This document shows positions 18,597-58,300 of a DNA stretch of 64,000 nt, in pieces (within the stretch, counting starts at the first letter, position 1; the number at the start of each line of letters is the position of its first letter). Under the pieces are notes generated by a model, which worked only from the letters and a program-made list of their open reading frames with translations, did not search any database and was not told the origin of the DNA. The DNA is from Cloeon dipterum. Its lineage: Eukaryota > Arthropoda > Insecta > Ephemeroptera > Baetidae. The DNA lies in assembly GCF_949628265.1 (NCBI RefSeq), contig NC_088788.1, forward strand, positions 23,360,335 through 23,424,334, in the 5' to 3' direction. A program made the position numbers and the translations under genes.

Positions 18597-19179
18597 ATTT
18601 ATCCCTGAGTGTTTTCGTAATAAAATAATAAATTTCTGTTAGATTGATCAGAAAGATCTTTGGAATTAGAATTTTACTAGTAGTATTTTTTTGATTGGTT
18701 CTTTTCTTTCGAGATGGGCGGCCCCCTGATAGTGAACAACTCGTCAAAACCCAAAATATCGAAACATGGGGTCACATCAATCAGTCCGGAAAAAAGGACC
18801 ACCCAATTTCAAGATTTAATGTGCGAAAAATCCAATTCACTCGCGTGAGCTACCAACTTATGAATAATAAAGTGTTCTGAAGGTGGGGAACATTAAATTT
18901 AAAATGTTTGAAAGTAATCAACTAGGGAAAATTTGAAGCACGAGCTAATCCCGCAACTAAAATTCAAATATTGAGCGCTAATTGGGTAACGAGAAGGAAA
19001 GGGACTCTGATTGGCCATTCCACCAGGCTACCAGCGTGAGCTGGCGTGAGCGTACCACCACCACCAGCTGACTGCATCGGCATTGTAAACAGAAGCACGC
19101 CGCCGTCTCTTGTGCACCCTCTGCTCTTCTTTTGTGTTAATTTTTGGTTTTCCTCTGGATTGTGTATTCTTTTACAGCA
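18597..19179 (+). promoter_or_regulatory. DNAJC21 promoter and 5' leader
   Basis: This gap of about 580 bases separates two plus-strand genes. It holds two inverted CCAAT boxes (ATTGG at 18,981-18,985 and 19,010-19,014), followed by a GC-richer stretch at about 19,020-19,120 that probably contains the transcription start. The sequence just before the ATG (TTCTTTTACAG then CA-ATG) looks like a splice acceptor, so the leader may be interrupted by an intron. No TATA box is evident. Confidence 0.5.
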
Positions 19180-26173: not shown

Positions 26174-27696
26174 GATGGTGAAGCCGGCCGGGGTGGCATT
26201 CCCGAATCCGACGAGGCCCAGGCCTCCGTGCGAGGGGTGGGCAGTACAGCCGCCCCCCACGTGGGGCAACTGGCACAACACCAGGGACGCCAGTTGGCCT
26301 GCTGAGCGTCTGTAATCAAATGAGGAAAGATTGGTGAGCACATTGCATTAGGGTATATTATGATGAAATTCTAGATAAGCATTTCGCAGCTGTTAATTTT
26401 GCGAATGATAGGATTACAGCGAAAAGATTCCATATATTATCTTTACCATATTCTGATCATTGATTAGCTGGCGTGAGTGCTTATTCAAAAAACCACTCGA
26501 GATCCATTTTAATCAAACCCGAGGTGGAAAGCAGCGAGTTTACTAACCCCGCTAATGTAAATTAGTCACAATACGCAAGGGTGCAAATATTTGTCTAAAA
26601 AATTCAACTTCCTTTTCGTTTAACGTTTTAATTTGTTCGTCAAATTTGCACAGCGTTACAAAACTGCGGCCACTTGAAATGCTTGCCGAGAATGCCGCTC
26701 TTAACTCACCAGCCAGAGATAAACAGAATCTTATTCGCAAACTTAGGTGTGCAAACAGCATTCAGAGGAATCTGTCTGCCTGTGTATGTCAAAAGTCGGT
26801 CTCTCTATGCGGGCCGCGAGTGCCGCGCGCGCGAGAATTATCTCTCCTTAATTGCTTGATGCGTGTGTACCGAAATAGAGTTCCGAGTATCGCGGCGCTC
26901 AAAATTTCGCCAGATTCACGGGAATCGCAGCTGTCGGCTAATTGCAATTCTTAGAATAGACTGCACAAAATCTGACTATTGTGCATACTAATTAGCGATT
27001 TCTCCTTCATCATTGTTGCAAATGCTTCCGAGAAGTCGGTGAACGCACGCGCTCGCACTCAATACACCAAGGCTGTTCTTTAGATTGTTTCCCACTTTCG
27101 TAATGAGCAAGCGGAATAAAAGCGCGCTATACACTCGCGGGTACCGCGCAAGTGCCCATATTGTCAGTGAAAAAAAAAACACTCCGGGACTTGGTTACTT
27201 TACCTCACAATACCTAATTCTTCGAAGAGAGGTGAAGTGCGCGCTCATGGAGTTTTTTGCAATGATCGCGGCAAGTACATTATTATATTACTCGTTTTTT
27301 TTGCGACGCAGACTCCATTCAAGCAACATCATCAAACGAAGCCTTCAAAGGCTTACAAAGTTTGCATGAGGAAATTCTTGCATAAAAAGACCACTCAGGC
27401 TAAATGCAAGCACAACGTACACTATTTATGCCTGTGCATTTTGCGAGCATATTTGCATAGAATTTGTAGTACAGAAATACAATTTTCAAGATATATACAA
27501 CACTACCAGGTTGCAGATGAAACTTTAAGATTAAATCAGGAGGATATCAAACGTGAAGTGCGCGAGATTACTTGAGGACTTAATTAAGTTGCGGTCGAGT
27601 CACCAACAATTCTTGGCTCGGTTAATTCATTATTCGCGAGAGAAGAGCCACCTTGATGGAGTGGAAAAGAGCGAAAAGAATGACTTTGCAGTCGGT

Positions 27697-28207
27697 TGAC
27701 GTCATTTCAGACGAGAGAGTGTGACTCAGTCAGACCGACGTCGTGATCTCAGCTCAGTCAGTCAGCCAGCCAGCCAGCGAACGAGAAATGATGCGAGGTG
27801 CATTCCTCGTTCTTGCCAATTGGCCACCCCGCAAATCGTTTTAGCTCCTTTTAGGAAATTACATTTACGAGCACCGCTGCTTTTTAGGTGCGCCTCTTCG
27901 TCCGCAACCATTTCGCAAGCTGGCCACTTTTGCGTTCGCACAGGCGACCGTGCTTGTTTCCCGCCGGCCAGACAACCGATAATTCAGCTAGCAAAAGTGG
28001 TGCGTGGGCACTCTCTCACTCGCGAAATTGAAGCAATTTCAACGCTTGAACACGGCATAAATTACCATCTATCTTGATGCACGTCCGTCGCGAGAGGGTG
28101 TTTTTAGTGCTGCTTCCAAGAAACGTTCGCTATTCAAACTCGCGAAAAGAGCAGTTATATATTATGTGCTCGCGTCCGGCGCGCTGTTATATGTGTGCCT
28201 ATATAAG
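27697..28207 (+). promoter_or_regulatory. CRE, AP-1 and TATA motifs in a GC-richer block
   Basis: A full palindromic CRE (TGACGTCA) lies at 27,697-27,704, an AP-1 site (TGACTCA) at 27,722-27,728 and a TATATAAG box at 28,200-28,207. A run of CAGT/CAGC tetranucleotides lies between them at about 27,745-27,780. The TATA box points along the plus strand, away from SOCS, and no plus-strand gene follows. It may be enhancer DNA or the start of a noncoding transcript. Confidence 0.3.
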
Positions 28208-30379
28208 CGCCGAATACTGAGAATTAGGCGTTTGCAATGTTTTTGTGTTTGGGTTAGTATCACGATAAAATACAAGTTTGATTATTCTTTATAATATGCA
28301 AAGTTCGGGCTCGACAGTTTTATAGCTACGGCGAAAAAGGAACGGCCAGGAACTATAACGCTCAGCGGAATAACATTTTCAAGAGAGAGCCTGAGTGTTT
28401 CGAAACAGACATTTTGCGTCAGAAATGCGCCTGTTTATATATAATTATCCCCACGTGTTACATGGATGACCGGCCGCAGCATCCGAGAATCATTTTCTCT
28501 CTCGTCATCAGCGGCACTTCCAGAAACTCCGCAAGATAATATTATTTGAAATAAACGTCACCTGCGCGACAAGGATCCGTAATTTGAGAGGCCGAACAAT
28601 CTCAACAAGAAAGCAGCGACTTCCTTATCTCCTGCATCGAGAAATTATCATTAATAAAAGTCCAAGAAGGGGACTGTCAGACACGTTCAGAGAAATCCAT
28701 GATTGAACTTTATATTTAGATTTGCAGAAAAGTGCGTCTAGATTAGTTCATGTACAGTGGAAACTTTTGCAATCACTTTTTACTGCTTCAATATCGAGTT
28801 CTAGTTTAACTGTAAAAATTTCGTTCTTTAAGCCAACGCTTTAAATTGCATGCAATTTATTCGTCCCTTATCGATTTTATCAAACTAGGAAATCCTCCGG
28901 ATATTGCGCATTCGCCCGCGCACTTTGTTCATCAACGCCTGGAGCCGTGTAGATCAAATATTCTAGTAATAGAATGGCGTATTATTCTCAAAGTCACAAA
29001 CTTGCTCGAATACGCCCATTTTCCTTCCTGCAGAACGGATTGGGCCCTTCAGTATAGGACGCAGAACCGGCGAGGCGTGCGCGCGAATTTTCCAGGAAAG
29101 AGGATCATTATGGTCTGGATAAAATGGCGAGCGCACAGCAGCATTCGAATTTAGCGACGAACGCTCCCAATTTGTCTCGTCCTACGGCATCGGCGAACGT
29201 ATGTGATGCTGGCGGATCCAATGATGCGAGATGCTGTGCTCGTCGCCCAGTTAAAAAGCCATGCGACGTGCCGATTCCAGAGACCCTTCGCACAGCTGCT
29301 CAGTGCTCGGAAAAGCGCACGGGCCCCGGTTTTTCTGGGAATTGGCTCACGCCGGAGAGAATCGCTCTTTCATCTCCGTCTTTAATTTCAGCCCCACTTC
29401 AGCTCTCGGTCGTTGCTGGCAGGGTTATGTATCACGCTTGTACATAATGTGATCTACGGGGTTGGTTTATGCGTATAGTGACGTAACACGTAACACACTA
29501 CTTGATAGGCGCGATTGATCGCATAAAGATGATCCAGCGTTTCTGATTTGAATGCTGAACGTAGTTCCCACGCAAATCTTTTTTGGTCACTGTTTTCACG
29601 AGAGTTGAAGGGAAAAGCAATTTTGATTTCATCAGTTTATTAAATGGTATATCAAATATCGATACACGACTTTCTTGCTCTGCTTGCACAGCGAAACGGT
29701 TATATATTTAATTAATTTTTTTTCTAAACCTCCATTGACAAGAGGATTTAAGAGTGATGGTTTATGATGATATATCACGTGTGATATGCAATTCCCGTGA
29801 ATTCTGATTAGATACTTTGTCAGGGTTATAACAGTCGGTCCTAAATAATAAATTTCCGCCATCAAACAGCCCCATGTTACGTTGGTATAATGAGCAGGCT
29901 CCAGGTGAGTTTCAAGCCGGTGCAAACTCAGACCACAGTTGGTCAGGTCAATTTGTATTATTTATGTTGGTGTACCGCAGCGAAGGTTGGACACGAAACT
30001 CGCGCTCTCCCTTTTTTCCACAAGACTAAGCCTCAAATCGGCACGAATGCTGTACGGGAATATAAAGCATTTATGTTTTTTGTATGCAATGCTAGTTCCG
30101 TTTGCCCTCAGGAAACCTTCGCTGGTTTTCTCTGTGAAATCCGACAACAGCGTGTTCTGCCTATTCGTGCATACTCACAATTTACAGTAAAAAAAGAAGG
30201 AAACCCCTCGAGTTCGTTGGCTGCTCCTAAGTCTATCTATCAGATGTAAATATTTCAAAGGCAGCAACGAATAATAACGCGCAAGACACTCCGCTTCAGC
30301 GCCGCTCGGCCCCTACTAACCGGCGCTTTCGTAAAATATATGTATATTCGACCCAGCAAGGAGTGACGTCGGCGGGGAT

Positions 30380-31545
30380 TTCTCGGAAGCGGCGGCGCTT
30401 TTAACAAACACACACATCAAACGCAGCCTACGAGAAACACACACACACGGCACCAGCCTACAAATAAAATCAAATCACTCGCCGCTCTCATCTCATTCAA
30501 ATTTACTTTGGACCGTCCAAAGTGTACAGCGCGAGACGTCTGCTGTTTCGAGAGGGCACACTCATTTTGACTCTCAAGCAGCAGATTTCTCATTTCTCGG
30601 ACCTTCAGTGCTTCTCGGAATCGCGCCGTTCTCAATGACACTTCGCAGCATCTCACTCTCAACACGTACGAATTTCCAGGCGATTTTAACTAAAGGAATT
30701 GGCAGCGGTGCTCAGCAATGCGCTTCCTGCACGTTGCATTTGGAATACACAATTGCGTTACGTTCTCTCTGCCTACTTCTCATTCGTTTATTTATTTATT
30801 CCCTCTTTCTTTGTGTGCGCACGGACGGCGCTGTCCGTGCGCTCGCTCTCGGCACTGCCAGGATTCTCGGAATGCAGTCTTGGTTAATTCACTTGAGCAA
30901 GCGCCATCTGTGCAATATGCAAATTTGCTTCCGGATTCTCGGAAACGACGAGCGAGATTAAAACGCAGAGAAGTGGAAAATCAGCTCAGAAGATGTAACG
31001 ACATAGAAATCCGAAGTTTGCCATACAAATCGACCATCATAGCTGCAGGAAATTTATTTGAGATTCAATCTTTGACCGGGATAAGTTATGAGCTGCACAG
31101 GTGTTGTCAAGTGTAACATACATTACTTGTCTTTTAGTTAGACATTTCTTTACCAACACGCACGAAAAAGAATAAATAAATGTAATTATTTTGTTCCAAG
31201 CTTTTTGATTGGATCATTGATTTTACAGAGTGATATTATCAAATCATGCAGAATATCACAAAAAGTAGAGCAAATGGTTAGCAATTTTAACTTTTTTTCA
31301 ATAATTCCTGGAAAAAATATATCTGCCTCGAATCAACTGATAAAGAGAATAAAAAAGGCCAATGAAACATACCCTTGAGTCTAGCATAGTGACTTTCGGT
31401 TCTGCAAATTACTTGTGGCCAAACTCGGCATCCATTTTAACGATCGCTCTTTTCATCTGTCCCAATTATACATTCTACCAAAGGTCGCTCGGCATTACAA
31501 GGGAGCGAGTGCGACGGCAGAAATTAGCGAAGCGAGTTCTGAGAA
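30380..31545. promoter_or_regulatory. STAT-site subcluster with four identical TTCTCGGAA
   Basis: Six STAT palindromes lie within 1.2 kb. Four are the same nonamer TTCTCGGAA (30,380, 30,612, 30,864 and 30,936); TTCCTGGAA (31,305) and TTCTGAGAA (31,537) follow. The block is GC-richer than its flanks. It is a good candidate for a core JAK/STAT-responsive enhancer or promoter of the SOCS gene. Confidence 0.6.
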
Positions 31546-31667
31546 TCGGCAATTCACTCTGGCCGATTCAATTAATGTTCTACTAGCATGAGCAGCAGGC
31601 AGGCAAGCGGCTTTGAGACGCAATAGAGAAAGAAGAGATTTAATTGAAGAAGAGACAAAGTGCATTT

Positions 31668-33495
31668 CGTTACGCGTCCGGAAAAAAAGTAAATATGCAT
31701 TGTGCGTCAGCGAACAAATGGTACATATGCATTCTGCGTCAGCGAACAAAAGGTAAACCTGCACTTTTCACGATTTTACAGGAGGAGGTTTTATTTGTTT
31801 GCTGACATTACCTAAAACTAACCGGTTTAACGACTCCAGACATTAAATTTGAGACTGAATGCCGCTCATTTCAAAAAATGATTCGACTTGATACATGCAA
31901 CAGAAACGGAGAAATGGCACATTTCTCTGCCAGCATGCACGAGAGCCAGCAAATCAATCGATCAAATTTCAAAATTAAAATAGAAAGCGAAGCTGATAAA
32001 CCGATTTCCACGACACAGAACTAATGCCAACCGATTTAACTACATAATACGACCGGTATTTAATGAATTAAAAAACCAATATAAGAAAGAAATCTGTCGA
32101 TTTTTGACTTGAGCAAAAAATACGAGACTCTGGAACGCGTCTTTTCTCGTCTCTTAAATTAAAATAGCGATTGCAATTTGAGGTTGCGGCATCTGTTGAC
32201 AATAAATTATCAAAAATAAATTGCAAAGTTTTCGTGCATTATCCATGAAGCACTCTGATAAATTGTGTCGCAACTAACCTCTTTTATCAAATAAAACGCA
32301 TCACCAAATCTCGGGTTTGAGCCATCAGAATTGCAAAAATTGAACACCGTTTGGCTCGTCTCAACCTCCCCTAGACAGCCAACGGGTTTTGGGGGTGGTC
32401 ACCTACCCCACCTACCCCACCAACCCCAATTTCTGCTTTTTTTCTACCTCTGGAACTTTGTGCCACCCGAATCTCGGGTTTTAGTGGTCCTATTTACAAA
32501 AAATACGTACTGTTTGACTAGTCTTTGAATGAACTAAGTAACTGAATGGGTTTAAAGAGGGCAATTACTCGTCAACGTCGTGCCAATGTGTTGAAACAGA
32601 CGAAAAAATGCTAAATTTCCCGTTATTGAGGGGGTTAAAAGGGGGTTGGGGGTTGGTTGGTCCCATACCCCTTTATTGCACTTGGGTACGTCAAGACGAG
32701 TCTAACGGTATGCGGTTTTTCAAAATCAGATGATTAGAAGTCGAGATTTAGTCGATCATCGTTTTTTAACAACCTCGAAAAACAAGGTTTTTCAAAATTT
32801 CCATTATTTTAATAAAACGAAGAAAAACTCCAATCCAAATTTTAATGTTTTTAACTAAACTTTCTGTACTCTACAAAATGGCTATGGAAAAAATAAAAAA
32901 TTTCAGTATATTCAATTTCAAATTCGAGTTTTAAATAAAAAATCAATTTTATGACCTTGACCTTTGACCTACCACTTTGAGGTCAATATAAAAGTTGTTT
33001 GCCATGTTGAGACGAGTTAAACGGTTTTTTAATTTTTGTTCTAGAACCATCCTGAGCAAAGTTACAAAGTACTCAAAATTCCCAGATTTTGACTTTCGAA
33101 CGCCCGCAAAACCCGCAAAAATTAGAAATTCGGAGTTTTTTCAACTATTTTCTCGGTCAATTAAGGCAAAGTTTGCGCAAAAAAAAATTCTTCAAAGTCC
33201 ATTGATCCCTGGACAAAAATTTGTTGATTTTCACCTTTTTCACAGATTTTTGCAAATGACATCTTTTGTCAGGCTATAAGCTAAATTTAAATTTTCCTTT
33301 ATTTGCATATAGATGTCACTAATGATGAAAAAATGAGTCACCCCATGTATTTTGACCCGAATTTTTCATTGGTGGAATAAAATCGTTTTGCGTCAAAAGT
33401 GCATATTTACCATTTTCACGATTTACCTTTTGACAGATGTACCATTTGTCCGCTGACGCACAATGCATATTTACTTTTTTTCCGGACGCGTAACG
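31668..33495. mobile_element. 1.83-kb element with long terminal inverted repeats
   Basis: The ends are inverted copies: 62 bases from 31,668 match 62 bases read backward from 33,495 at 60 positions. Similarity then resumes after a gap at CAAAAGGTAAA. The left repeat holds a 33-base tandem duplication (31,693-31,758, word TGCGTCAGCGAACAAA) that the right repeat lacks. ATTT directly flanks both ends (31,664-31,667 and 33,496-33,499), consistent with a 4-base target duplication. The interior has no transposase-like frame; the longest, 32,995-33,279, resembles nothing known. I read it as a nonautonomous DNA transposon of unassigned superfamily. Confidence 0.75.
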
Positions 33496-33503
33496 ATTTG
33501 CGA

Positions 33504-33825
33504 ATGGAGAACACCTCCGGGCCAGACTACAGCGGTTCAGAACAATGGAGAAATGCCGTGAATGGTGGTGTGCCTGCCTTTAGCGCTAGCACTTGATTAT
33601 TGGTATTGCTTCTCGGAAAAAGTGGGGCACCAGCTGCTCGATACACTGCTTGGTGCTCATGGCGGCGAAGAACACCTCAAGCCGCTTCGGATGCTTTTCG
33701 AGTCGGTTAGTCTGCTGACGGAGCGCGTTTTTTGCTGTGCGGAAAAACTAGAGGTCAACAAAGGAAACGGTGCAAGCGTTAGGAATTTGCTGTGGTTGGG
33801 AAATAAGAAACCAAGCTACCAGTAA
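33504..33825 (+). pseudogene. Unrecognised protein-like segment, possibly frameshifted
   Basis: Just outside the right end of the inverted-repeat element, a frame starts at 33,504 (MENTSGPDYSG...) and stops at 33,596. A second frame, shifted by one base and open from 33,562 to 33,825, continues with a helix-like peptide (GHQLLDTLLGAHGGEEHL, then RMLFESVSLLTERVF). Base composition is more even than the surroundings. The pattern could be a short gene fragment or retrocopy broken by one frameshift, an exon of an unseen gene, or chance. I do not recognise the family. Confidence 0.25.
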
Positions 33826-36800
33826 GGAGTAAAGAAGACTATGCATTAACGAGACATGCGCAAGAATCTCTACCGCACTATTGTAAAATTTAACAAACCA
33901 GACATAGCTTCTAGCTTTCGAAAACTTGCAAAGAAAATTTTTCTCGATTTGGAAACCACCAACAAAATAAAAAGGCCTGCTATTTTTAGAATGGTTTAAC
34001 GGACAGGAAAAAAGCGTCCCCTTGCCTCTCCCACAGCCAAATTGATTTGGCGAGGAAAACGCAAGAAAGGAGAATTCGGGGTGATTTTAATATTGACGCG
34101 CTCTTGCTACCAGTACCAGTTCACGGAATTCAAATTACATGAGTATTAATATCCGCCGAGCAGGCAAAGAGCTTTGATGATGCTCTTTCCAATGCCAAAC
34201 CCAGCCGCCTCTATATCAGATAATTAGAGAGTGATACGATTCCATGCAATCGTGCTCTTATAAATTTGTCACAGGCAAACGTGAATTATGATTAGCACTA
34301 ATGAGAGATTAGTCTGAGAAACACAGCGCGGCAGAATTCAAACACGCAGATTGGCACTACTCAAACACGCTGCAAGGGATGGCTCCAAGCTCCATTCGGT
34401 ACGACAGAGAGCAGCTTTTCCGAGAAATTTAATCAGCACCGCTGATGAATCTAATGCTCACTCGCCTCCACGCACAACCGAGCTAAGTCAACTTCATCAG
34501 TGCCAGCCTCGCGAATAGATGTCATAACGCTCAAATTGATGGCGACTTTTTTTAAATATGTGTTGTTTAATTAAGAGTTGTTGGGATAGTATCCTCTTTC
34601 AACTCGTAAATATGCCGGACTAAATGCAGCCATTATTGATGAGTCAGCGTCCTCGAATCAAACACCTCTCTTGGAAATGGTGTACATATATATCCCCACA
34701 TTATAAATTTCAGAAATAAAAACAGGGCGATGACTAAGGAAAAAGGTGTGCTGGTTGCCCTGCGGCCTCCCCCCTTGTTCTCTTCGTTGGCGATCCCTTT
34801 TGTGGAAAAATGATTAAAATATGAAGGTTGCGAGGCGGTCTACACAGCCGCCGGAATTCTCTGCTTGCGGCCGACGAGGCTGCTTATAGTGAATCGCCAA
34901 GAATGTGCTGCGCTGATCAAATTCATTTTCAGTGACAAGATTTCCGAGAAATGCTTTTCGACGGTGCCAAAAATCCATCTATAAATATACGAACGCGCAC
35001 TCTGGGCGTTCTTGATCGAGTTTTCTGAGTGTTCATTACGTTACACGAGAGGATGATTGAGTAGTTTCCATTATTTTTATATGTAGCCAGATAATGTAAC
35101 AGAAAGTACAACTGAAAAAGGCTTTTGAAAAAGATAAGATAAACTTGGAAACCTTCACTGTTGACATGGATCAAATTAAATTGGAGATTCGAGGTCATGG
35201 ACCAATCGAATCAACATAAAAAAGTAAATTCACCGCTCCACGCATGCAGGTAAAACATTTAATTGAAAAAAAATTGGCGCACGTTTACCCCACTTAAGAA
35301 CGTAAGCAGGCGATAATTAAGAGTGCTTTTGACACTCTTGAAGCGCGATCCAAGCAATGAATACTGCGTCAAAACATTGGGGACCAAACGCGGCTGGCGG
35401 ACGACTCATGTGTTTGCAACTTTTGACGCGTCGGTTTCGTTCTGGGAATCCACTCTGGCGTGCATGTGTTTGAAATACTTAGGGGTTCCGAGTAATTATC
35501 CTTGGGCCCCTGCCAGGCTCAATTGAGAGGGACCGCGCGCTACGCGATTACTGATTATTGACCGCAAGCACATCGCGCACTCTGTTTATATGTGTGTGCA
35601 TGTGCGAGCTGAAGTGTGCTTTACAACAACGTCCAAGTGGAAGAGTGCGTAAAACGTATATAACCGCTTCGCCGCGGCGCCTGTTAATTATTCAGTGGTT
35701 AATATGCGCATCGGTGGGTGTACGCGATAAATTACCAAGAGACATAATTCGATATTGGCCCCGGTGTGTGCCGCTGATAAACCAGTGTTTGCTAAAACGG
35801 GCGCTCGAGACAGCTGTGGCCCTATATGGAATTCGCATTTAGTGTGCGAGCTTTTATGGGGTGGAACACGGATGGCGTTTGAATACAAATGATCAAAATT
35901 TGTGTCTCGTACAGCCGCTCTCTGAGCTGGCAAATTTGAGGATCACTATGCATGGGAATTGTAATTATGATGGCAGGTTGAAATGGAAATCGCCGTTGCT
36001 CGCCATCGAATACTGCACACTTGAGATATATCTGAGCATCACATTTTCAGCTCGCATTCACACAAAGCACTCTCTCGCTGAAGCAATCCTTTAGAAACGG
36101 TATCCGCATCGCAGTAATTGGCAAGTAACCGTGGATCACACCATAGAAAATCTTCCATTTTGCGCACAGCTTTCGGCGATACCAAACAGGGAGTGCAGAT
36201 TTCCGGGCTCACACGAACATCGGTCCAGCCACAGCCACACCGCAAGCACATGGCTTGGTGGTGGAAAAGCACAAAAGGAGTCGATTCCACGCCTGCCTCT
36301 CTCGGGTCGAAACAAAAAAGAGAAAGGAACGGTGCCAGCGCACCACACCGAGAGGAAAAAGCCCTCTTCTCGCGGCTTTTCATCAATCGGCACAAAGAGA
36401 AAGTTTATTCACCTCGCTTGCGAAGAGCAGCATATGAATGCGGCCACACAGGAGAGCGAGCGGTGGCACACGTACCGAAAACGAGGCATTGCAAACATGA
36501 ACACCGCGTAATTGCGCACCTGAATTAGCGGCGCGGCTCCTCCGGTTTCAAGTTGCCATGGGCTGCGGGTCGGATTCAGCGTTCGGCCGGTTGGGAAGCA
36601 CAGGAAAGCGTCGGATTCGAGCGCAGCCTAGCGTTTTCTCCGCAGCTGCACCGCGATCGCGAGTCGGTGCTCTCAACACTAAGACTGACTGACTGGGAGG
36701 TTGTCAAGAGGCGACCTTGCTTCGTGGCGCACGCGCACCAGCAGGCCAGCAGACAATTTCATCTCTTTTCCTCAGGAGAGCAAGAGCAGCCAGAGTATGC

Positions 36801-37890
36801 GTTTTTTCTAGCAATCACCGGCCGTTTTTTTCCATCTCGCCAGACAGCAGACACTGGTTCAAATCGTCACAATGCTCAAAATGGCCAGTCCGTTGTATTG
36901 AAAAACTTTGTGTGGGCCTTTAAGCTTGGTTTACTTTCAGCTCCATTCATTCTCTCTAGTATACACCTTGTCCCATTCAAACAATGCTTCACGCAAATTT
37001 GTATTATTCAATTTAATGGCCATCGCGGGTCCGCCGCATCCGTGTGAAATTCTACTTGCAAACAACAAATCATGCCAATAAAATAGGTCAATCAATAAAC
37101 CCTATTTCCAATTGATTAGTAGTTTCCTATCAAAATCCTTTCAATTTAAATCAATGAAGCATTGAAATTTATCTGCAATAGTTGTATTATCTTATCTTCA
37201 CCCCTCATTGATTTATTCATTGCGTATCTCTTTTAACATTATTATCTATGTTACAAATACGTCGCAGAAAAAAACAAGACACATATTATAAAGTTATCTC
37301 TTAAGACACTTTATTCTTAGTAGTGCTTTGAAGGAGAAAAGATGAAGGTAAAATAGGCGAGGTCGAATATTAGGCCCGTCCAAAATATATCCAAATTCTT
37401 TAAAAATGGAAACGACAAATTTAAAAACTTTTTTTAATGCGAGGAAAAAGGCAGTGGTAAAATATCCTCTCACGCCCAACCGACCCTTCTCAAGGACGAA
37501 TATTATCAAACGGGCAAAGACCTTAAACGGCAGCGATTGCCGATTACGCAGAATTCCTGTACCGTGGATAAAAATTTCATAACTTCATTTGCGCAAGTGC
37601 CAATTGAGTAATTCTAGCAATGCTGTTTTAATTGGACACGTGACTCGCCGAGTTTTGGCTAAAAATAATAACGTTATTCAAAACTACTGCCAGGCAAATT
37701 TGAGGCGTAAAAGCACACGTGGATGCAATTAAGCGGGATTCCCTAAACCAGCGAGATTTTTGCGTGGCTGCAAGGGTTTATAAAAAATGTGGATGACGTT
37801 GGACCGACTATTATTACTGAGCTACTTTTCCTCATGTTAAAATATTCCACAAATACGCACTAAACAGCGCTCACACGTAAGTCAGTGCAC

Positions 37891-37922
<32 letters not shown>
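37891..37922. repeat. CAG/GCA microsatellite
   Basis: An uninterrupted trinucleotide run of about ten GCA units lies in noncoding DNA. No open frame through it suggests a polyglutamine tract in a real protein. Confidence 0.9.
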
Positions 37923-38075
37923 TGGCGAAAATAGCAATTAAAGGTAGCAACTAACTAAAAAACATAATTTCTTATCGGCAGCATAAATTGACGCCATGCA
38001 AGCATGGAAAACGCACACTGGCTTTCGCTATTTTCCCTGTTTAATCTCATTTGAAACATCGCTGACTGCTTGCTT

Positions 38076-44000: not shown

Positions 44001-44300
44001 TCGGAAGTGGAGCTCATGTTTTTTTCCGATAAAACGTGTGATTTCTGAACAGGTAGTAAAATAATTTTGCCCCTCTTGATGTTAACCCATTTTGGATTGG
44101 AAAATAATTTGTATTTGACTGTGCGAAAATTGCGTGAGTTTCACAGTGTGTCACTTTTTCCCTTTTGTAAGCAATAATATCTGGAATTTCAGAGTGAACA
44201 CGAGTTTGCCGGCTTGGCTTCATATTATGTACTACGGCGAACGCGCTTTTACGACTTATTGCGTTTTGACATGCAGAGGCATTCCTTGCTTTTCGGGGAA
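38076..44300. promoter_or_regulatory. Densest STAT-site subregion
   Basis: Twenty-one of the strict or near-strict STAT palindromes and several looser ones fall in 6.2 kb. Close pairs occur at 39,626/39,642 (16 bases apart), 40,351/40,376 (25) and 41,726/41,754 (28, including TTCCGGGAA). Paired sites favour cooperative STAT tetramer binding in other animals. No gene overlaps this subregion. Confidence 0.55.
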
Positions 44301-47300
44301 ATTTCAGCGTTGGAAACTAGGAGCTCGACGTGTTCAACGGAAGTTAAAATAAATGCAGTGTCAGAATCGAACCCCTTTTTGGAGAGCTGCTTTCGAAACA
44401 CTTCTCAGGAAACAAAACAACGGAAATTCATAGGAACTGGACAGCTCCGCTAAACTTTATGAGGCGTGGAATTGTGAAACGTATTTTCCGGGTATTTTTT
44501 AAAAGCCGTGAAATTATTTATGTAATTTATGTTTCCTTGTCAACAACGGTTTTGCTGCTTTTCCTTAGTGACAACCAAAGTGTGGTTGCATTTACCGATT
44601 ACTACATACAGCTTTTAAAATAACATCGTCAAATTCAACGGCCACGTGATATTGAACATGCTGCATTCCAGCTCATAAAAACACGGGTGGCAATATGACA
44701 ATGTATTTTTTTACTTTTGTTTCAGTCTGCAATCAGAGTTTAAGTGTGATTCGAACATGGGTGAAGGACAAATAATTTAAATTAATAACCCCCCGAACAA
44801 CTGGTGCTTCTAAAGAGCACGTGTCGTGCTATCAACGGTGGGTGCAAAAGAAAATAAACATTGCTGATTGTGAATGAATCGTACTCACTGCTGTTTTGGT
44901 GAAATGGTGACGGATTGTTTTCAGCTTCGATCGCGAAAACTCCGATATCTCTCCATAGATTCGCTGTCTAAAAATCGTCGAAATTTGTTGCGCAGCAGCT
45001 TGAATAATGGGCAGGTGTAGCTTGTCAGAGGGAAACACAGCATGCAGCACACACCCCACACAACACGCCAGACGCTGGACTGGCAACAGCAAGCCAGGCG
45101 GGGCAGATAATGAAGAATGAGCTTCGCGTCCGTGTTGTTATTCTTGCTGGCTGGCAGCAGCGTACGCAGAGCCCTCTTCAGTGATTTGTTTCCCCCCTCC
45201 CCTCGGCGGCAGCATTATCGGCCGTAGTTTCCCAGAACTGCAATAAACAAGTTCAGCTGGGACTTTCAGGAATCCACTGCTCTCCGCGAAGCTCTAATAG
45301 AAAACCGACCCAGCTGCCCGTAGGAAGGGGCACTATATTTATATCATATACACACATTTTAATGTAGATAAAAATACTCAAGCTATCTCGCAGCGGCTGT
45401 CTAATGTCTGTGCTGTGCCCTTCAGCATCAATGATTTTTGATAAAGATTTTTTCATTCTACAAATTCTAGCTTCAACAAAAAGATTGATCTGAAAAGAGA
45501 CAAAAATGACACCAAAAATTCGGCGTGTATGACAAAGATAATTTTACCAGGCCAGTGCATGTGCAATTTATTTTTTATTTTTTTGAGTAAAACAAATTTT
45601 CAAACAAGAAAAAATGAATTATTTGAGGGACAATAACTTCAAAGTTATTGAAAAATATTGTACTTTTAAATAGTCCAAAAACCGATTTTTGGATTGAGCG
45701 AAATCGTGTCGGTCATAAGGGCACAATTCTGCAGAAAAATCAATAATTTGCAGCAAGCTGCCAGCATGTCTCATTATTTCGACACTATAAACTCAAACTC
45801 TGCTAACAATAAGGTATTATTTCTAATCGCTTTAGACCACATCAAGGCGGTTTATGAATCAGAATGCTTTAAAAGTTACTTGAAGTGATTTTTAGACAAT
45901 ACAAAGCGTAAACTATAGAGATGGTGAAGGGTGGTTACAAAAGAGTGTTGGTACAACCAGATTTATGTTGCAAAACAAAGCATCATCCAGCCGCCGGACT
46001 TGGAATAAGGTCAGAACAGGCGAAATCGGACTGTTGCAACTACATTCCCGAAACTGTTATCTTCTCTGAATCACACTGATTGTGCGATAAAAAAAGTGAC
46101 GGCGACGAAACGCTCCGCACTAGGTTATTAAAATCAAATTTCCGGAATTCACCGTAATTCCGCCGCTGCACAATAATAAAAGTGGTCCCTAATTCTCGGT
46201 GCGGTCGCTTTCTATACTTATATTTAGAGAGGCGAATTATGTAAACAAACACATTAGAAGAGGTGCATTTCTGTCATGATGCCGTCCGCTTTTCTTGGGA
46301 GCAGTAAAGTCATTTCGCAGAAGTGTTGCTGCGGTTTGTTTATTTTCTTAAACGTGTGTTAGTTGATTAACCCTTCTCGCCTTGACAAGAGTAGCCCCAT
46401 TATTTCGCAGAGTATTGAGTGAGAAACAACTACAGTATATGGCAACAATTTGATAAAGCAAATTCAAATGCGCTAGCAAGAAAATTAAAAGGCAAAATTT
46501 TAAAATAATAAATTGCTCTTTTGTTAATATATTTTCTAATCTAAATTTAAATACGTAAGACAGTATTTTAGCCGAAAAACTTGTCAATTTCGTTCCTCGT
46601 TTTTTTTCGTTTGCACACAGCCTTTTACAAATTCTGACTTTCATTTGAATAAATATGTATTTGGCTTTGAGGGCTTTCCTAGAATTGCAAAATGGGTCTG
46701 CACAAAAGCTTCACGGCCAAGCGACGACGGAGAAAAGTTGGATTATAAAACAGCCCGGAGAAAGCAAAAAGAACATTATCCTGCTCATACGTGCAATAAA
46801 AGATCAGATAAAATCGCTCATGTGCAAATATAAAAATACTAAAAAAACGCTCTCTTTTGTCTTGTGGAAGACAATAAAACATCGTGCGCCACGGCTTGAG
46901 ATGAACCTATATGCGGTTGTTCTGCTCAACAATCACACGTATATTTTCTCTTAAATATAAAGAAGGAAAGGTCTGGACACGTCTTAGATGTACCTCCCAT
47001 GCATTTTCACGACGTGACTTTAAATTGAATTCGTAATAAATAAATTTAGTTACCTCGATATTTTCTAGAATTCCTAAGTACAGAAATTGATATCAAGATT
47101 TTTATTTCTCGAGTTTTATTTTACAATATATATATATTGCACAACCAGCTAAAGTATTAGTTAAGAAAATTAAAGCTTAAGCAATTGCAGATCAATCGAA
47201 CCGAGCATAATACTTTGTATTAAGCGTATTCAATGGCAATGATGCAATTTCAATTTTTTTATGAATTAGGTTTTTAACGAGACTATTTGGAATCCAAAAG

Positions 47301-50292
47301 CTTTTCAGTAACTAATATTTACAGAACTAATTCGTTGAAAAATAGTTTTCAGGAAAAGTGTTGCTTTCTTACTTAATAAGATCCTGGAATGGCCTCAGAG
47401 GGAACACAAATACGAATTTAACGATTTCCCAGGGTGCAGCTGGCACAAAGCGAACAAGAGAGAGGGAAAGAGACGCTTTACCAGGAAAGGTGAGCATGAT
47501 GAAATGTATACAACTGCAGGCTTTATCAACGGTCCTCATCTTTTCATACAAATCGACTAGACAAGTGACCAAATTGATTACGCCTGTGAACAAAAAGGGT
47601 GGGTTCCAAATTGGAATAAAAAATTATGCTGCGTCGACAACGGCGAGAGAGCCGAAATTCTGAGAACCGCTTTTGTGTAAAGCTTCATTAATCCTCTCAG
47701 CTCGGCATGAAGCTTTTTAAGCTGCATCTGGACGAATATTGCGCCTGCCGCCACCAGAGAAAATTCATCCAGCTTTTTTGATCCGCTCATCAATCCACTC
47801 TGAACCTTTTGATGTTGCCATTGATATTCTAATTGGTTATTCCTGGAAATCTGCTGTGCCAGCACAGATGATTTTGTTTTGTGTCAGAACTGGCTCGTTG
47901 TTCGCCGCCACAGGAGTTCGCGCCTAACTTTTATCATCGTTGCATTAAAATTAGATAGTGACATGAGCGTTAGATTATTAGTGTTTCATAATTTAAGATG
48001 TTGTCAACGAAGACTTGGCTAGCTGACGATCAATTCTAAGAAACACATTGAAAATTACTGCTTTCCTATGTGGTTGCATACCTTAATGTTAAACAACACA
48101 TTTAAAAAATTCATTTTGAAATTACGTCTCATGGCTTTTAAGAAACCATATATTCAAGGTATTCAAAGAAGGATAAATAATAAGAAACGGATTTGTTATA
48201 ACATTACAAACTTGAAGAAATCTTGGAATTCTTGTATTTTTATGCTTTTTATCTTGTTTTCTTTATCTCAATCAGCTAAGCTATTTTTAAACCGCTATAT
48301 CCCTCAAAGCGTTTTTTTTTTAATTTTTCCTTTTAAATTTCTTATCATTGCTACATTTTTGAATAGGTAAAAATACGGTATATGCTGCACCCGCGTGGAA
48401 ATTGGATTAAAATTTCTGCAGAGTAAAGGAACGGCGATTACGTGTTCCGATTTGCGTTATTTAAGTTTCACACTGAATAGAAGCATCCATTGAGTTGAGC
48501 ATACAGTGGCAATGCACATGTGGAATATTTTGCCGCAATTATCCGTCAGTCAAACAGAATACCGCTGCTACTGGTAATACTAATTGCCATTATTACCAGG
48601 AATGTGCTACACAATTAACTCTTTAGAAGCAAATAACGAGCGAAAATGCTCTCACTGTTTCGTCTGTCGCACGGCAACTGAGAAAAAAGCAAGTGGAAAT
48701 AATTGCAAATTAGGCAGAATAGTCTTTGAAAAAGAGAACATAGCCGCTCAACAGCAGTGGTCTGGAAATATGTGTCATTATCATTTTAAGCTCGCCTGCC
48801 ACCAAATTGACTTGCAAACCTCACCGATTCGCAGAAGAAAGACACAATTTATTAAAATTTCTGGAAATAGGAGCAGTGAAATCGTGTGAGGTTGAAAAAG
48901 TTATTGGTTAATTTTCTGCAAGGGGGCTCAGAAAAAATTTAATGGGAAAAATGAATCCAAGAAAAATTGCATTTTTTAAACATATAATTTAAACAATAGA
49001 TCTAAACAACTGTTTTTATATCAAGATTGTTGGTGGCTTGAAAACTCAATATCTATAATTAAAGTGGAATGATACTGGGCAACAATTGAAAATTATTTAA
49101 ATTATTAGATGCCTTAAGCAATTGACCGATAAACAATTTGTTCAACGATTTGAAATAATAAAAACATGACCTTCCTACAATAAAAATTCAAATTTTGCCA
49201 ATTTTCTCCAAAATTTACAGCGCTTGACTACATTTTCTTGTCACATTCCGATTCCTCTCGTCGAGATCTGTCCAACGGTGTATGCCGCTTATTGGGGAAA
49301 CTCTTGGTTTTGAAATTAAATCGGATTTCAAGTAAGGAGACAGCCCTTACCATTTGGAAAGCACAGTAACTTTCCAGCCAATTTTCTCGAATAATTACAG
49401 CGCTTCTTAGGTCAATTTAGGCTTTAACTGAATCCTAAGGGACGAGTTTATGTATTGGCAACAAGCATTTTCCAGGCTTTTCCAGTATCATTCCTCTTTA
49501 ATTGATCATAAAAACATTATTGCATAATTTTAAAACGAGGAGTTGTTAATTTGGAGAATGAATATTGGTGAATACACGTAATTGATTTTTTTAATTTTAC
49601 ATTTTTTAAGAATTCTCATTCAGGGCCACGCTCGATCTGCTTTGTTCAGATCCTTAACCCCTTCAGGGCCAGCCAAACTGATATTTTCAGTTACTCACAA
49701 CCCTCTGAATACCGAAAAAAACGTAAGTTGTCCCCCAAAAAAGATATCATCGCGTTCGACGAATCCTTAAAGAATGCAACTCTTTAACCTGCCAAAAGAC
49801 ACGTCAAAATCTCTTGCAGCAAAAATTTAATACTGAATTCGACGTTCAGCTACGATCGCAATGCACCCGTAAAATTATACGGAATCCAAAATAATAATAA
49901 CCAGGTTAAAATCTAAAAAAATACCCTCAATGTGAGGAATTTAAAAAAAACTAATGAAAATTCATGTTTATTTAGGCTTTTTAATTAACCTAAAGGGAAA
50001 TCAATGTTCTAACTTGCCATTTCCCTTCCCTCACTTGTTATTAATCTTCATTCTGATTAAGTGTAAATTTTGCCTTTGTTGCCCTGCTCACACCACTCTT
50101 TTGCACCTGAGCATGCATTTTAGTTGGTGACTGGGTGCAAATATGAAAGTTTCTTGCTCTTATACTCAATTTATAAGATTTGAATGCAAAGCTGCACGCA
50201 ATCATTTCTGTGGGAAACATTAAAGACGGATAAAATTCTAGCTCTCAGGTCTGATGCATTTGCCGCGAAGCTTTGTTCATTCTGCCATAAAA

Positions 50293-51207
50293 TTCGCTGA
50301 ATAGAAAACACTAAAAAAATGCTTAAATCCAGACTTTTCCCGTTTCTGAGTAGTGGCATTATGCAAATGAGCTTTTTGTTGCACTGAAAAGAGAATGGCT
50401 GATGTAATCATCTCGCTAGCACCTAAATGGCCGATTCCACGAATATCTCTGAATATAAAAAAGGAATTATATCAAACAGCGAATCATTTTTCACAGAAGA
50501 GGCCGCATTTCTTTTCACATACGGCGATGCAGCATAAAACAAAACTCATGTCATCGACGAGAGCTAAATTGATGTGTGGCCGCGACCAAAAATATTTCGC
50601 GCACGCAGCGCCCTGTAAGCGCTTTTTCCGAGAAGAATGTGAGGCAAAGGTGTTTGGTAGCCTCGCGTTTTAAGCAGGATCGGATCAGGCTTTTGGTGAA
50701 GAGCTAGAAATTAAGGAAAACCGAAAAACTAGAAAAATCCAAATCCAGCACGTTTTAAATGCAACAGCAAGTTGAATAAGTGTAATTGCTCTATAGCAAG
50801 CAGACAATATGTGTGACAATACAATCCCCTTTACTTACAAAATAAACTTAACAACATTTCTCAGAAGAAACCCCCTACACGCAATGATCAAATAGTTTTT
50901 CTGAGAAAATGCAGAGAATATGATTTTGAGCCATTCTATTGGCACAGTTCAAAGACATTTAGGTTTATGTGTCCAAAGTTATTCCCAACAAAGGGCGTCC
51001 CACACCCACAGAGAACGTAAGTTAAAAGAGGGCGATTTTCTTTGTTGTGAAATTTCCGGTGAAGAAGGGTCTGTTTTTATGCCCCCACTTTTTTTATCTT
51101 TTTCTGTGAAATAAATGGTGATACATCGATTTTTCTTTTGTTGAGCTTTACACACGTGACAAAATATTTATATTTTCAACACAAAAATGTTCGAAACGTT
51201 CTAAGAA
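50293..51207. promoter_or_regulatory. STAT-site subcluster
   Basis: Eight TTCNNNGAA palindromes occur in about 0.9 kb: 50,293, 50,435, 50,490, 50,626, 50,868, 50,899, 51,102 and 51,199. They include TTCCGAGAA, TTCTCAGAA and TTCTGAGAA, and two lie 31 bases apart. The surrounding sequence is AT-rich and noncoding. Confidence 0.5.
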
Positions 51208-54200
51208 ATCAACTGCGGAATGCATTACGGTCTGTTTTACCGAGACATATCGAGCGCATACACAATTATCATATTCCGCATATTCCTGATTACGGCAAAT
51301 ATTTACATAGAGCCAACAGCAGGGTCGGAATTCACAACCAAATTGTGTAATTTGCATTGACAGCACGTGGCGAGAAGGCACCGGACGGACAATCACTTTG
51401 TTCAGCTCATAAATTTAGCGATGCAAAGAAAACAAGGAAACGCCAACTACAAAGCACACTGAACGTGATGTCTGCTGCCTTAAAAGAGTAACGAACGGAG
51501 CTTGCTCGATGCATGACTTTTGGTGACTTCATCGACATACGGAATAACAACCGTTCTGCATTAAAAGAAATGGAAATCGTGATTACTCTTCGACTTTCAT
51601 TCGACCCTTTCGCCGAGAGCCGAGACATGCAACTAAAACAGTGTTGGTTCTTTCAAAACGATACACAAGTATTCATTGCATGTTCCAGGAGGAGCGAGTT
51701 GCAATATTCAATAATTTTCCTACTTTTATTCAATAGAATATTTTCGCTGGAAATTTGCTGACCAGATTGCGGAATAATTTTCTTCGACATGGATTGTATG
51801 AGCACACGCTGCATCACTTGAATCGAACAATCAAATCAATGGTTGCACGCCGTTAAAAAGGCGTGCTTGCTGAGTGAACAATTCCGCTGATTGAGCTTTT
51901 TCCAGGAACAATCTTGAAACGCTGCTATGCACAAGAATCGCGCGATTTTCAAGGGATAAGAAGCATTTTGCGCTGTTTACTCTGTGAAATAGGGAAATGC
52001 AAGGGCAGTCAAGCGGGTAACCGGTATAATTATTCAGGTAATTGCCAAGGATATTAAGGTCGTCAAACGTTTTGTTGCATAATTAAAAATGCGTCGAAAA
52101 AAAATAAAAATGCGTGTATTTTACGATTAAATTTTCTAGAATGATTTTTAAAATCAGTGACGAAATTGAGCATGGATTTCACTTTCCTAACTCTTTTGTT
52201 TGCATTAATTGCTTGTTGCGAGGATAAGTGCACTTTTTGTTCCCATTTTACAGCTTAACTCTTTTGTAAGAGTATGTCTAGCCAAGATGGGAGTCATTTT
52301 AGCCGCAAGGCCTGTCTTAAGAAAATAAAAAGGTGAATAAACGATTAAAACTACATACACACTCGGGATAAAAAAAACCTCAAACTATTTCCAGATAAAC
52401 GTGTTATTTTACAAATAGTTGACATTTTACTACCAGTTTTACGTAGGGAAGTTGAATAATGGAGTGAAGAGCTTAAAGCGCGTAACATTTAATGAAATAA
52501 CACACGACACTCTGCAAATAGTGTTGCATTTAGTGTCAGTGTTTATACAGTACAATTTCCATCAGTTAAAAAAGAGTATTACTGGGCAGGAGCGTTTAGA
52601 GCAAAACGTTTTTTTTTTTTATTAAAATCCACTTTGGAGCCACGTGTTAAAAGGGAAAAAATGATAGAAGCGGAAACATGACTTCCTCAATTCCTGGAAA
52701 ACGCAGGCGCGAGAACGGCTTGCACAAAGCAAATATTTGTCCCAACTTTTGTGTGCTCTCTGCTTCTTTAGCTTTTAGAATGGTGTTGTTAGAATAAGCA
52801 GGTGACACAGCTTTCACGTGTATTTTGGCTTTGTGATTTTCAGTATTTATGAGTTTGACATCTCTCTTGTATTTCTGACACAGCACTATTTACTATCGAA
52901 CACAAATAGTGTTTCACGCATAACATGTGCCCTGATAAAAAAATGTTCAAATTTTATCGAAGAATACAAATTGAACTTACTTGTGCAAAATTGACTGGCA
53001 CGACAAAATTGAACCATCTGTGCAAAAGACTGCATTATTTATTTTTCATTTACATATTTAATTTAAATAATAAAATGGAAAATACATGCCAGAATGGGCG
53101 ATCGGAACTAGCAAAATATCTATTCTCAACTTATATATGTATTGTTAAGATGAGTGATGAGTGTGGAGAGTGGACAATTTCAAATTATTCTAGCAATTCG
53201 CATCAGCTAATAACTAGTGACTCATGACAAACGTCAATATCAAACTTGGCAAAGCATTTGAGCATTGGCTAGGGCGAATAATAAAACGGCGCGAAATAGC
53301 GATGCTGGACACAATGTGTCATTTCCAGCGGCTTTTCTGGGAAACAAAACAAAAAGGAGGAAATTAATTGCGCGCACTGCACCTCTCCCTTATACATCCA
53401 AGAGGCGACGATATTTTAAAATGCAGAGTGAGCCGCCTATCAGTGTGTACAATTGGGTGTGATTTCTAGGTACAATTAAAGCGTCCTTTCAGTAAAATTA
53501 AATGCGGCTGATTGATCGTTGGCGGAGTGACGGCGCGCCAGTCATGACTCGACACGATTCAAGTGATAGATTAAGAGAAAAAAGTCAATCCCAGGAAGCA
53601 AAACAAAGGTGTTATAATACAAGGAACGTAGTGTCATTAATGTGCCCGCCAAGGGGACACTGTACGTAGTCAGCAGTTTCGAATTCGAAGAAGGTGGAGA
53701 TGCAACCACTGCGAGTGAAAAAGACCCACCTCGGTAACCTGAGCACAGCGCTGGGCTTTGTGTATTCAAGCTGCTTTTTACTCAGAAACGCGGCTCGTTG
53801 GAAAAGCTAATTGAGGGCAGGAAGCACTGTTTCACGCCGACCTCCTCTTTTTACTCCATTTTAATTTTCAGCTTCATCAAGCACCGGTGCCGAGGGTACC
53901 GGAACCATAATCATTTTTCAATTTAAACCGAAAATTATTTTTTAGATTGCGAGATATTTGTCAGAGAAATAGCGCTCCAAAAAATAAAACATTCAGGTGG
54001 TGCAGGTTTTGAAGCCCATATATATCCAGTTACAAATAATGCCAGCGCCGAATGTCGAAGATTTTTTTAATTAACTATCTCAACAAAAAAGCAAATCGCA
54101 CTACAATTGGCACACTACTATACTTTATATTTAACTAGAAACTGTGCCACTCTTTATGTTTCCTTTGTGAATGCGAACAATAAAAGAGCAGAGTCACATT

Positions 54201-55070
54201 TCCACTAACCGATATCCAAGCGTGGCCCAGTCCAATGCCCAAAAAAGCAGGTCACCTTAGAATGCTCAAGGAGTGCAAAAGCAAACTAACAGTTGCTTGA
54301 AATTTCTTCACATGCACAAAACATTTGGGAAAGTAATTTACGTTTAACTAACGCAATTGTTTAATTAGTGGTGACGTTCTTTAACATAGCTGTGCAATAA
54401 ATATTACTGTTTGGAAGAGTCACAATTGCAAACATGGCACCTGCATTCCGAGAAGCATTTATCACAAAGCGTACAGTGATAAAACCGATAAAACGAACTA
54501 ATTATCGTAGAGAGCGCGTTCACGTTTAATTGCCGAAAAGAATGTTAATGAACTTCCAGTTAACTTTTAAAAGAAAAATACTAAAATGTATGATAGTAAA
54601 ATATCTGCTCAAAACCTTTTAAAGTTATCTATTTCCCCCTTTCCAAGAATATTATTATCATATCCAGCCTTTTAAATATTTCCTTCCTTCTAAGTGAATT
54701 GAAGAAAAGGCTGTCCATGATGTGGCATAGGCAGTTAATATTTGAAAAATTATATAAAATTACTTTTATCATTGGAAAATTTAAAGATTTTGCAAATTTT
54801 ACTCCACTGACATCATTACTCTAATTGTAAGTACAAAGCTAGATGCAGGTAAGAAACGAAATTTTAAGATATTAAGTTCGTATAAAATATTCATAATCAG
54901 CACCATAAAATTTGGTTCATTCGAATTGTCGCCAGGAACTATTGTGTAGCTTAAGCGATGATTAATTAATTATACGTCTTGATGTTAAGCAGCCTGCAGC
55001 TAGTTGCAAGAAAATAAGAAAACGCAGTGTTAAAAAAACATACACCATGTTTCAAACAAAGATAGGCACT

Positions 55071-55076
55071 TTTATT
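55071..55076 (-). terminator. Candidate poly(A) signal of LRRC45
   Basis: The minus strand reads AATAAA about 470 bases after the LRRC45 stop codon. A closer canonical signal was not noticed. Confidence 0.4.
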
Positions 55077-55547
55077 AATTGACTTTGTTCCAGGTATTGA
55101 AAATCATTAGTTCCCTTCATACAACAACTGCGACTGACAGTTTCATTTGAAGACAAGAAATATATAACCCTTGGAAGCAGCAGCGATTTGGTTATCGCTC
55201 CATCATGTGGAACCGTTTCTGGGAAGAAATTTACATTGCACTTGCTTCATCCAACAATCTCCAGAATAAAAAATGTTTTCTCACTTCTTTGTACGTACAA
55301 AGACCCCGCCCAACCATGTCTACAGTGTCAAGATAGCATCTCGGAGCAAACAAATTGAAAAATGATGCATCACCTTCCTAACCCATAACCGCAGGTAAAG
55401 ATCATTCATGCATAAATTAACCTCAATTGAATTTTAAGGTAAGTAGTCCTTTGGTGTTAACAAAATAACTTACAATGATTGGTAAAAAGAGAAACACCTA
55501 CTTTGAATACAATTGTTTCGCATCTCCTCCAGGTCAGTTCACTGAAT

Positions 55548-58059: not shown

Positions 58060-58300
58060 TTTTCACATCCTGTAAAATTAAACTGACATTGCATAACTTA
58101 AATTTAGATGGTGAAAACACATAGACAAAAATAATGATCAACAAGACCCAAGTCCCAAGCATGTATGTATGTATGGGGGACTCACACTTTCCGCTCACTC
58201 ACACTTCTCGCTCTGATGGGAAGATTCAATGTTAATCCCTATCCTAGCGAGAAGTGAGAGTTGGGCGAAAACGGTGAGTCTGCCATAATTTATATTATAT
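58060..58300 (-). promoter_or_regulatory. Probable LRRC45 leader and promoter region
   Basis: An acceptor ends at about 58,071, so the mRNA has an upstream noncoding exon. A minus-strand GTGAGT following GCGAGAAGT near 58,203 is a plausible donor for it. A 16-base inverted repeat (58,197-58,212 with 58,246-58,261, 15 of 16 paired) overlaps this position. ATGT tetranucleotide repeats flank it at about 58,161-58,176. The exact transcription start is unknown. Confidence 0.35.

What the first reader, a model, noticed from the sequence alone, without database searches (positions are those of the whole stretch)
26948..55225. A 28-kb STAT-site megacluster beside a SOCS gene
I counted about 65 TTCNNNGAA palindromes in 28.3 kb, one per about 435 bases. 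With about 62% A+T the expectation is near 9. The strict STAT form TTCYNRGAA occurs 43 times where about 2 are expected. In the other 35.7 kb I saw four TTCNNNGAA (2,710, 15,906, 55,538 and 61,826) and no strict site. The cluster starts just upstream of a SOCS2/CISH-type gene and stops at LRRC45. STAT regulation of SOCS is established in flies and vertebrates; a control domain this long and dense is, to my knowledge, not described. Known Drosophila Socs36E control regions hold far fewer sites.
Basis: partly seen in the sequence, partly recalled or inferred. Interest (0 to 1): 0.92.

Follow-up and report, generated by a model that had tools for sequence, protein, structure and literature searches.

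The report
Mayfly SOCS gene's huge STAT-site array
In the mayfly Cloeon dipterum, the gene for a brake on JAK/STAT signalling sits in a 28-kb non-coding stretch with about twelve times the usual number of predicted landing sites for STAT, the protein it is expected to restrain, so it is probably an unusually large feedback control region.

Summary
Between 26,948 and 55,225 there are 65 TTCN3GAA and 43 TTCYNRGAA, against 13.5 and 3.1 in resampled sequence and 10.7 and 3.5 from 130 kb of the same genome. TTCN3GAA is the most enriched of 832 gapped palindromes. Flanks of the sites are no more alike than random positions, so they are not copies of one repeat. The genome is the mayfly Cloeon dipterum. 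The cluster therefore fills the 10-kb first intron and the 18.7 kb from exon 1 to the neighbouring gene. Twenty kb at the STAT gene and 30 kb before a SOCS5-type gene show no such cluster. Sites are scattered evenly and no partner motif comes near STAT's strength. Best reading: a STAT-responsive feedback control domain of extreme length. STAT binding, chromatin state and conservation in other species could not be tested here.

The parts
26948..55225 (.). Homotypic STAT-site cluster: 65 TTCN3GAA, of which 43 TTCYNRGAA; 22 TTCN4GAA in addition
24867..25052 (-). SOCS gene, coding exon 4 (SOCS box, stop codon)
   Evidence: SOCS_box hit at C3:23385225-23385326; splice sites read; protein P0001
25347..25680 (-). 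SOCS gene, coding exon 3 (most of the SH2 domain)
   Evidence: Pfam SH2; splice sites read; P0001
25842..26309 (-). SOCS gene, coding exon 2 (N-terminal region)
   Evidence: P0001; acceptor and donor read
26310..36412 (-). SOCS intron 1 (about 10.1 kb): holds 18 of 65 TTCN3GAA and 15 of 43 strict sites
   Evidence: acceptor, donor; counts
36413..36498 (-). SOCS gene, coding exon 1 of the annotated isoform X1 (start codon); no TTCN3GAA in it
   Evidence: P0001 N-terminus mapped; donor AG|GT; count
36499..55225 (.). Region upstream of SOCS coding exon 1 up to the neighbouring gene: holds 47 of 65 TTCN3GAA and 28 of 43 strict sites
55696..58062 (-).
   Evidence: open frames; Pfam LRR_1 below its cut-off; the name comes from no call

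Best explanation
The 28-kb cluster is the STAT-responsive cis-regulatory domain of a SOCS2/CISH-type gene in the mayfly Cloeon dipterum. Activated STAT dimers would bind many of the 43-65 sites in intron 1 and the upstream region and raise SOCS transcription; the SOCS protein, through its SH2 domain and SOCS box, would then damp the receptor-JAK-STAT pathway (negative feedback). Shown here: the site excess, its spacer specificity, its independence from one repeat family, the gene and its exon layout, and the lack of a comparable cluster in 20 kb at the STAT gene and in 30 kb before the SOCS5-type gene. Inferred: STAT occupancy, activation of SOCS, and feedback.
For: Excess 65 against 10.7-13.5 and 43 against 3.1-3.5. 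Leaving out the commonest satellite word, 39 strict sites against 3.2 from the whole-genome count. Spacer specificity: N3 23.0 per 10 kb against 3.7 background, N4 7.8 against 3.6, the other nine spacers from 0 to 10 at 2.1-5.0 against 2.4-5.0, of which N0 is about twice its background. Strict sites 16.5-fold, one-mismatch 1.56-fold, two-mismatch 1.00-fold. TTCN3GAA first among 832 gapped palindromes and 26,548 gapped pairs. Flank identity equal to random positions. TTCCGAGAA plus its complement 12 against 0.46 expected from the genome total. Gene is SOCS2-like: best solved-structure match SOCS2, E 6e-27; SH2 and SOCS box present. One STAT locus found in the genome. Drosophila Socs36E and mouse Socs2/Cish are STAT targets (PMC3238392 and PMC3564941, passages seen).
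Against: No binding, accessibility or expression data. No other species examined. No TTCN3GAA lies within about 1.6 kb upstream of the annotated start codon (nearest 38,076) or 1.0 kb into intron 1 (nearest 35,440), whereas the mouse loci have promoter-proximal STAT-bound sites; the true transcription start is unknown, and by my own arithmetic about 0.9 gaps of 2.6 kb are expected among 42 strict gaps, 2 being seen. Sites are evenly scattered rather than grouped into compact enhancers. The STAT gene of this genome, itself often a feedback target by my recall, shows no cluster in the 20 kb examined. NCBI names the protein SOCS3-like, not SOCS2.
Confidence: 0.78

Rival explanations
1. STAT sink: the array mainly holds activated STAT, buffering its free level, and SOCS activation is secondary.
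For: Sites are many, high-consensus and evenly scattered rather than in modules (CV of gaps 0.90-1.00, exponential gaps not rejected); no partner motif of similar strength.
Against: The strict word TTCTTGGAA occurs 26,995 times in the genome, probably mostly in a satellite (only the first 100 places were listed, all in one array), so 43-65 sites would add little to any sink; and a sink need not lie in the intron and upstream space of a SOCS gene.
Confidence: 0.06
2. The sites are read by another factor with a STAT-like palindrome, such as a BCL6/Ken-type zinc-finger repressor, alone or in competition with STAT.
For: The core overlaps the BCL6-type consensus (recalled); Ken and Barbie is named as a transcriptional repressor of the fly pathway (PMC3238392, passage).
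Against: The accompanying rise of N4 sites (22 against 10.3) fits STAT, for which both N3 and N4 sites are reported as regulated in vivo (PMC2877871, passages); the neighbouring gene belongs to the classical STAT target family.
Confidence: 0.08
3. The excess is neutral: a repeat family, satellite fragments or a local compositional bias.
For: The genome holds an array with TTCTTGGAA, and less often TTCTTAGAA, at 72-base spacing; a few short inverted matches of 20-22 bases in the stretch include sites (I17 and I23).
Against: Flank similarity of the 65 sites equals random positions at 10 and 25 bases each side; of 43 strict sites 4 are the main satellite word or its complement and 3 more the minor one (list); Markov order-1 and order-2 models of the region give 13; other spacers lie near background except N0 and N4; the repeat finder shows no family of more than three copies.
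Confidence: 0.03
4. The control domain belongs to another gene, such as an unannotated transcript in the 18.7 kb or the LRRC45-like neighbour.
For: 28 of 43 strict sites lie upstream of SOCS coding exon 1 and could in principle act elsewhere.
Against: 10 of the 44 open frames of 90 residues or more that overlap the stretch were scanned and have no Pfam match above cut-off; 15 of 43 strict sites lie inside SOCS intron 1; the neighbour lies with its 3' end towards the cluster.
Confidence: 0.05

Closest known systems
Drosophila Socs36E control region
   Same: SOCS gene, STAT target, several STAT sites in promoter region and first intron (PMC3238392, passages).
   Different: That paper gives 19 putative sites for the promoter region; here 65 (43 strict) over 28 kb. 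Socs36E is SOCS5-like; here the SOCS2/CISH-type gene carries the cluster, while the 30 kb before the SH2 exon of a SOCS5-type gene has 12 TTCN3GAA and 5 strict.
Mammalian Socs2, Socs3 and Cish STAT-bound elements
   Same: STATs of many cell types bind GAS sites at these genes (PMC3564941, passages).
   Different: There promoter-proximal conserved elements are described; here an even 28-kb scatter with a gap around the annotated first coding exon.
Drosophila vvl and trh STAT-regulated loci
   Same: Clusters of putative TTCN3/N4GAA sites point to STAT enhancers (PMC2877871, passages).
   Different: 85 N3+N4 sites in 144 kb against 70 expected, and 53 in 70 kb against 34; here 87 N3+N4 in 28 kb.
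Homotypic clusters of transcription-factor sites in general
   Same: Many sites for one factor in one regulatory region.
   Different: From recall, such clusters usually span hundreds of bases to a few kb; this one spans 28 kb.

Membership tests
Homotypic STAT-site cluster | Significant local excess of the STAT palindrome over resampled and genomic background | tested here: met
Homotypic STAT-site cluster | Excess specific to STAT spacer length and core | tested here: met
Homotypic STAT-site cluster | Sites independent, not copies of one repeat | tested here: met
STAT-responsive SOCS feedback region | Target gene is a SOCS (SH2 plus SOCS box) | tested here: met
STAT-responsive SOCS feedback region | Genome encodes a STAT | tested here: met
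   three STAT_bind matches at one locus
STAT-responsive SOCS feedback region | STAT binds the region and SOCS responds to JAK/STAT activity | not testable with these tools
   no ChIP, ATAC or expression tracks reachable
STAT-responsive SOCS feedback region | Sites or their density conserved in related species | not testable with these tools
   the genome is reported to have no relatives held; scans of viral and prokaryotic contigs found no SOCS

The most novel reading that the evidence does not exclude
A non-modular STAT-reading domain: the whole 28 kb works as one distributed array in which site number, not arrangement, sets SOCS output, giving a graded read-out of STAT level without compact enhancers or a fixed partner factor.
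Probability: 0.22. Interest if true: 0.82.

Novelty: new variant of a known kind. Interest (0 to 1): 0.62.

Why it matters
STAT feedback on SOCS genes is well known, but its cis-regulation is usually described as a few elements. If bound, this locus would be an extreme natural case of homotypic site enrichment, dense and even enough to test whether site number alone can drive a graded response. [quoted passage not shown]

Tried and rejected
One-repeat or satellite origin: rejected by flank identity, the repeat finders and the small share of satellite words. Partner motifs: with the STAT sites masked, no 6- to 8-mer of similar strength remained; the best 8-mer was a small-count word (4 against 0.1) and the best 6-mer CACGTG (14 against 5.2). 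Fixed spacing or compact modules: gaps fit an exponential and positions fit uniform (KS p 0.19-0.93), so neither is supported. Extended flanking consensus: weak at best, 0.16 bits or less per flanking position over the 43 strict sites. Hidden genes in the cluster: 10 of 44 open frames of 90 residues or more that overlap the stretch gave no Pfam match above cut-off; the other 34 were not scanned; the window has no Rfam match at gathering score. Relatives in other collections: 0 loci in viral contigs and 0 in prokaryotic genome contigs. Genome-wide ranking of clusters could not be done; the only partial look is the first 100 listed places of TTCCGAGAA, all on C1 (0.29-8.09 Mb), with at most 3 in any 28,278 bases against 12 here. 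Papers on Cloeon dipterum, by term search of the main text only: the genome paper (PMC7250882) and the ATAC-seq paper (PMC11491810) have no hit for SOCS or JAK; the gill regeneration paper (PMC11597413) has two for JAK, in its introduction and reference list, and none for SOCS.
Full report
Identity. The SOCS protein read from the window (283 residues) is 100% identical over the whole query to a 357-residue protein named 'suppressor of cytokine signaling 3-like isoform X1 [Cloeon dipterum]', on a contig of 37,097,636 bases, the length of contig C3 on which the window lies. The window is C3:23,360,335-23,424,334 of a 190-Mb genome. So this is the mayfly Cloeon dipterum.

Gene model. The 357-residue protein maps on the minus strand to four coding exons, 36,413-36,498, 25,842-26,309, 25,347-25,680 and 24,867-25,052, with GT/AG splice sites that I read directly; their lengths (86, 468, 334 and 186) add up to 357 codons and a stop. 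SH2 and SOCS box are present. Against solved structures the best match is SOCS2 (E 6e-27), ahead of SOCS3 and SOCS1. Of the listed relatives that bear a specific name, most are called cytokine-inducible SH2-containing protein or SOCS2(-like), a few SOCS3 or SOCS7-like (120 of 238 listed). I therefore call it SOCS2/CISH type, though NCBI's label for this one is SOCS3-like. Its SH2 exon matches no other place in the genome by protein search (1 match of 3 candidates).

Size of the effect. In 26,948-55,225: 65 TTCN3GAA and 43 TTCYNRGAA; order-1 and order-2 resampling give 13 and 3 (60 each). In 13 stretches from elsewhere (130 kb) the density is 3.8 and 1.23 per 10 kb, so 10.7 and 3.5 are expected. 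Each of the 21 ten-kb stretches fetched outside the window has 0-3 strict sites, while 5-kb windows wholly inside the cluster have 4-10. The whole genome has 48,665 strict sites, but 26,995 of them are the single word TTCTTGGAA or its complement, probably mostly a satellite: the 100 places listed lie in one array with 72-base spacing. Without that word 3.2 are expected in 28.3 kb and 39 are seen; minor satellite words such as TTCTTAGAA remain in that expectation, which makes it an upper figure. TTCCGAGAA and its complement occur 3,105 times in the genome, 0.46 expected here, 12 seen.

Specificity. Of spacers 0 to 10 between TTC and GAA, only 3 is strongly raised (23.0 against 3.7 per 10 kb); 4 is raised about two-fold (7.8 against 3.6) and 0 about two-fold (5.0 against 2.4); GAA-TTC in the other order runs between 0.4- and 1.7-fold. 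Against background, exact strict sites are 16.5-fold, one-mismatch sites 1.56-fold and two-mismatch sites 1.00-fold. Among 832 gapped palindromes TTCN3GAA leads with 65 against 10.8; the second, TCC-N-GGA (14 against 4.0), is contained in TTCCNGGAA, and the third is CACGTG (14 against 5.0). It also leads 26,548 gapped pairs, where the next ones (TCC-N2-GAA, TCT-N2-GAA) are parts of the same motif. With the sites masked no word of similar strength remains.

Not one repeat. Pairwise identity of the flanks of the 65 sites equals that of random positions (mean 0.316 and 0.316 for 10 bases each side; 0.296 and 0.296 for 25). Of 20 direct families and 25 inverted pairs found in the stretch none has more than three copies; a few short ones (D14, I17, I23; 20-23 bases) include a site.

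Arrangement. Gaps fit an exponential and positions fit a uniform spread; 1-kb counts have a variance-to-mean ratio of 1.0 for all and 0.81 for strict sites. So the cluster is one even field with sharp ends, not a string of compact modules. The largest strict-site holes are 35,440-38,076, around exon 1, and 48,034-50,626; by my arithmetic 0.9 such gaps are expected among 42, so two are not surprising.

Comparison inside the genome. One STAT locus was found; 20 kb around and upstream of its DNA-binding exons hold 3 strict sites. A second SOCS gene, of SOCS5 type, lies on C4 (read; the naming is mine from recall of that family); the 30 kb before its SH2 exon hold 5 strict and 12 TTCN3GAA, near background (3.7 and 11.3 at the rates). 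These speak for specificity, but only two other pathway loci were examined, and only part of each.

Literature. Socs36E has 19 putative STAT92E sites in its promoter region and a first-intron fragment that is used in the reporters (PMC3238392, passages); it is SOCS5-like. Putative N3 and N4 sites number 85 in 144 kb of vvl and 53 in 70 kb of trh (PMC2877871, passages), against 87 in 28 kb here. In mouse, Socs2, Socs3 and Cish are among the loci bound by most STATs (PMC3564941, passages). Searches for a comparable array showed none in the titles and abstract starts listed (20 of 54 and 12 of 114 papers listed); only open-licence papers are held, so this is weak evidence of absence.

Interpretation. 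The simplest account is a STAT-responsive control domain of the SOCS2-type gene, selected to hold many sites. The one-mismatch excess would fit site turnover, but it includes non-strict N3 sites and proves nothing by itself. What is not shown: that STAT binds, that the chromatin opens, that SOCS responds, and that other species share the density.

On the second reading I corrected the runner-up among palindromes (it is part of the same motif), the wording on the satellite (inferred beyond the listed places), the share of open frames scanned, the short repeats that include sites, and the TPR matches (below cut-off).

Noticed in passing
G000 C1:152,188 to at least 178,252: A tandem array with 72-base spacing carries the STAT-like word TTCTTGGAA in many units; the word occurs 26,995 times genome-wide against 1,248 for its reversed control. 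Whether STAT binds this satellite is unknown.
   Followed up: partly
whole genome G000: Outside the main satellite word, strict STAT palindromes number 21,670 against 9,964 for the reversed pattern (that word's reverse included), and TTCCGAGAA 3,105 against 1,396: about two-fold over control genome-wide, perhaps partly minor satellite words, otherwise unexplained.
   Followed up: no
window 31,662-31,729 and 33,434-33,501: A 68-base inverted repeat, 94% complementary, arms 1.7 kb apart, inside SOCS intron 1; the left arm overlaps a 32-base tandem repeat (31,684-31,757).
   Followed up: no
window 35,440-38,076: A 2.6-kb hole without any TTCN3GAA around SOCS coding exon 1, where promoter-proximal sites would be expected by analogy with mammals.
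   Followed up: partly
window 26,948-55,225: CACGTG is the strongest 6-mer after masking the STAT sites (14 against 5.2), a possible weak E-box partner.
   Followed up: no
window 37,891-37,921: A perfect GCA repeat of about ten units upstream of SOCS coding exon 1.
   Followed up: no
window 13,874-21,884: Exons of other genes on the far side of the SOCS gene: a GPS2-type match on the minus strand, a frame with TPR matches below their cut-offs and a DNAJC21-like frame (name by recall) on the plus strand.
   Followed up: no
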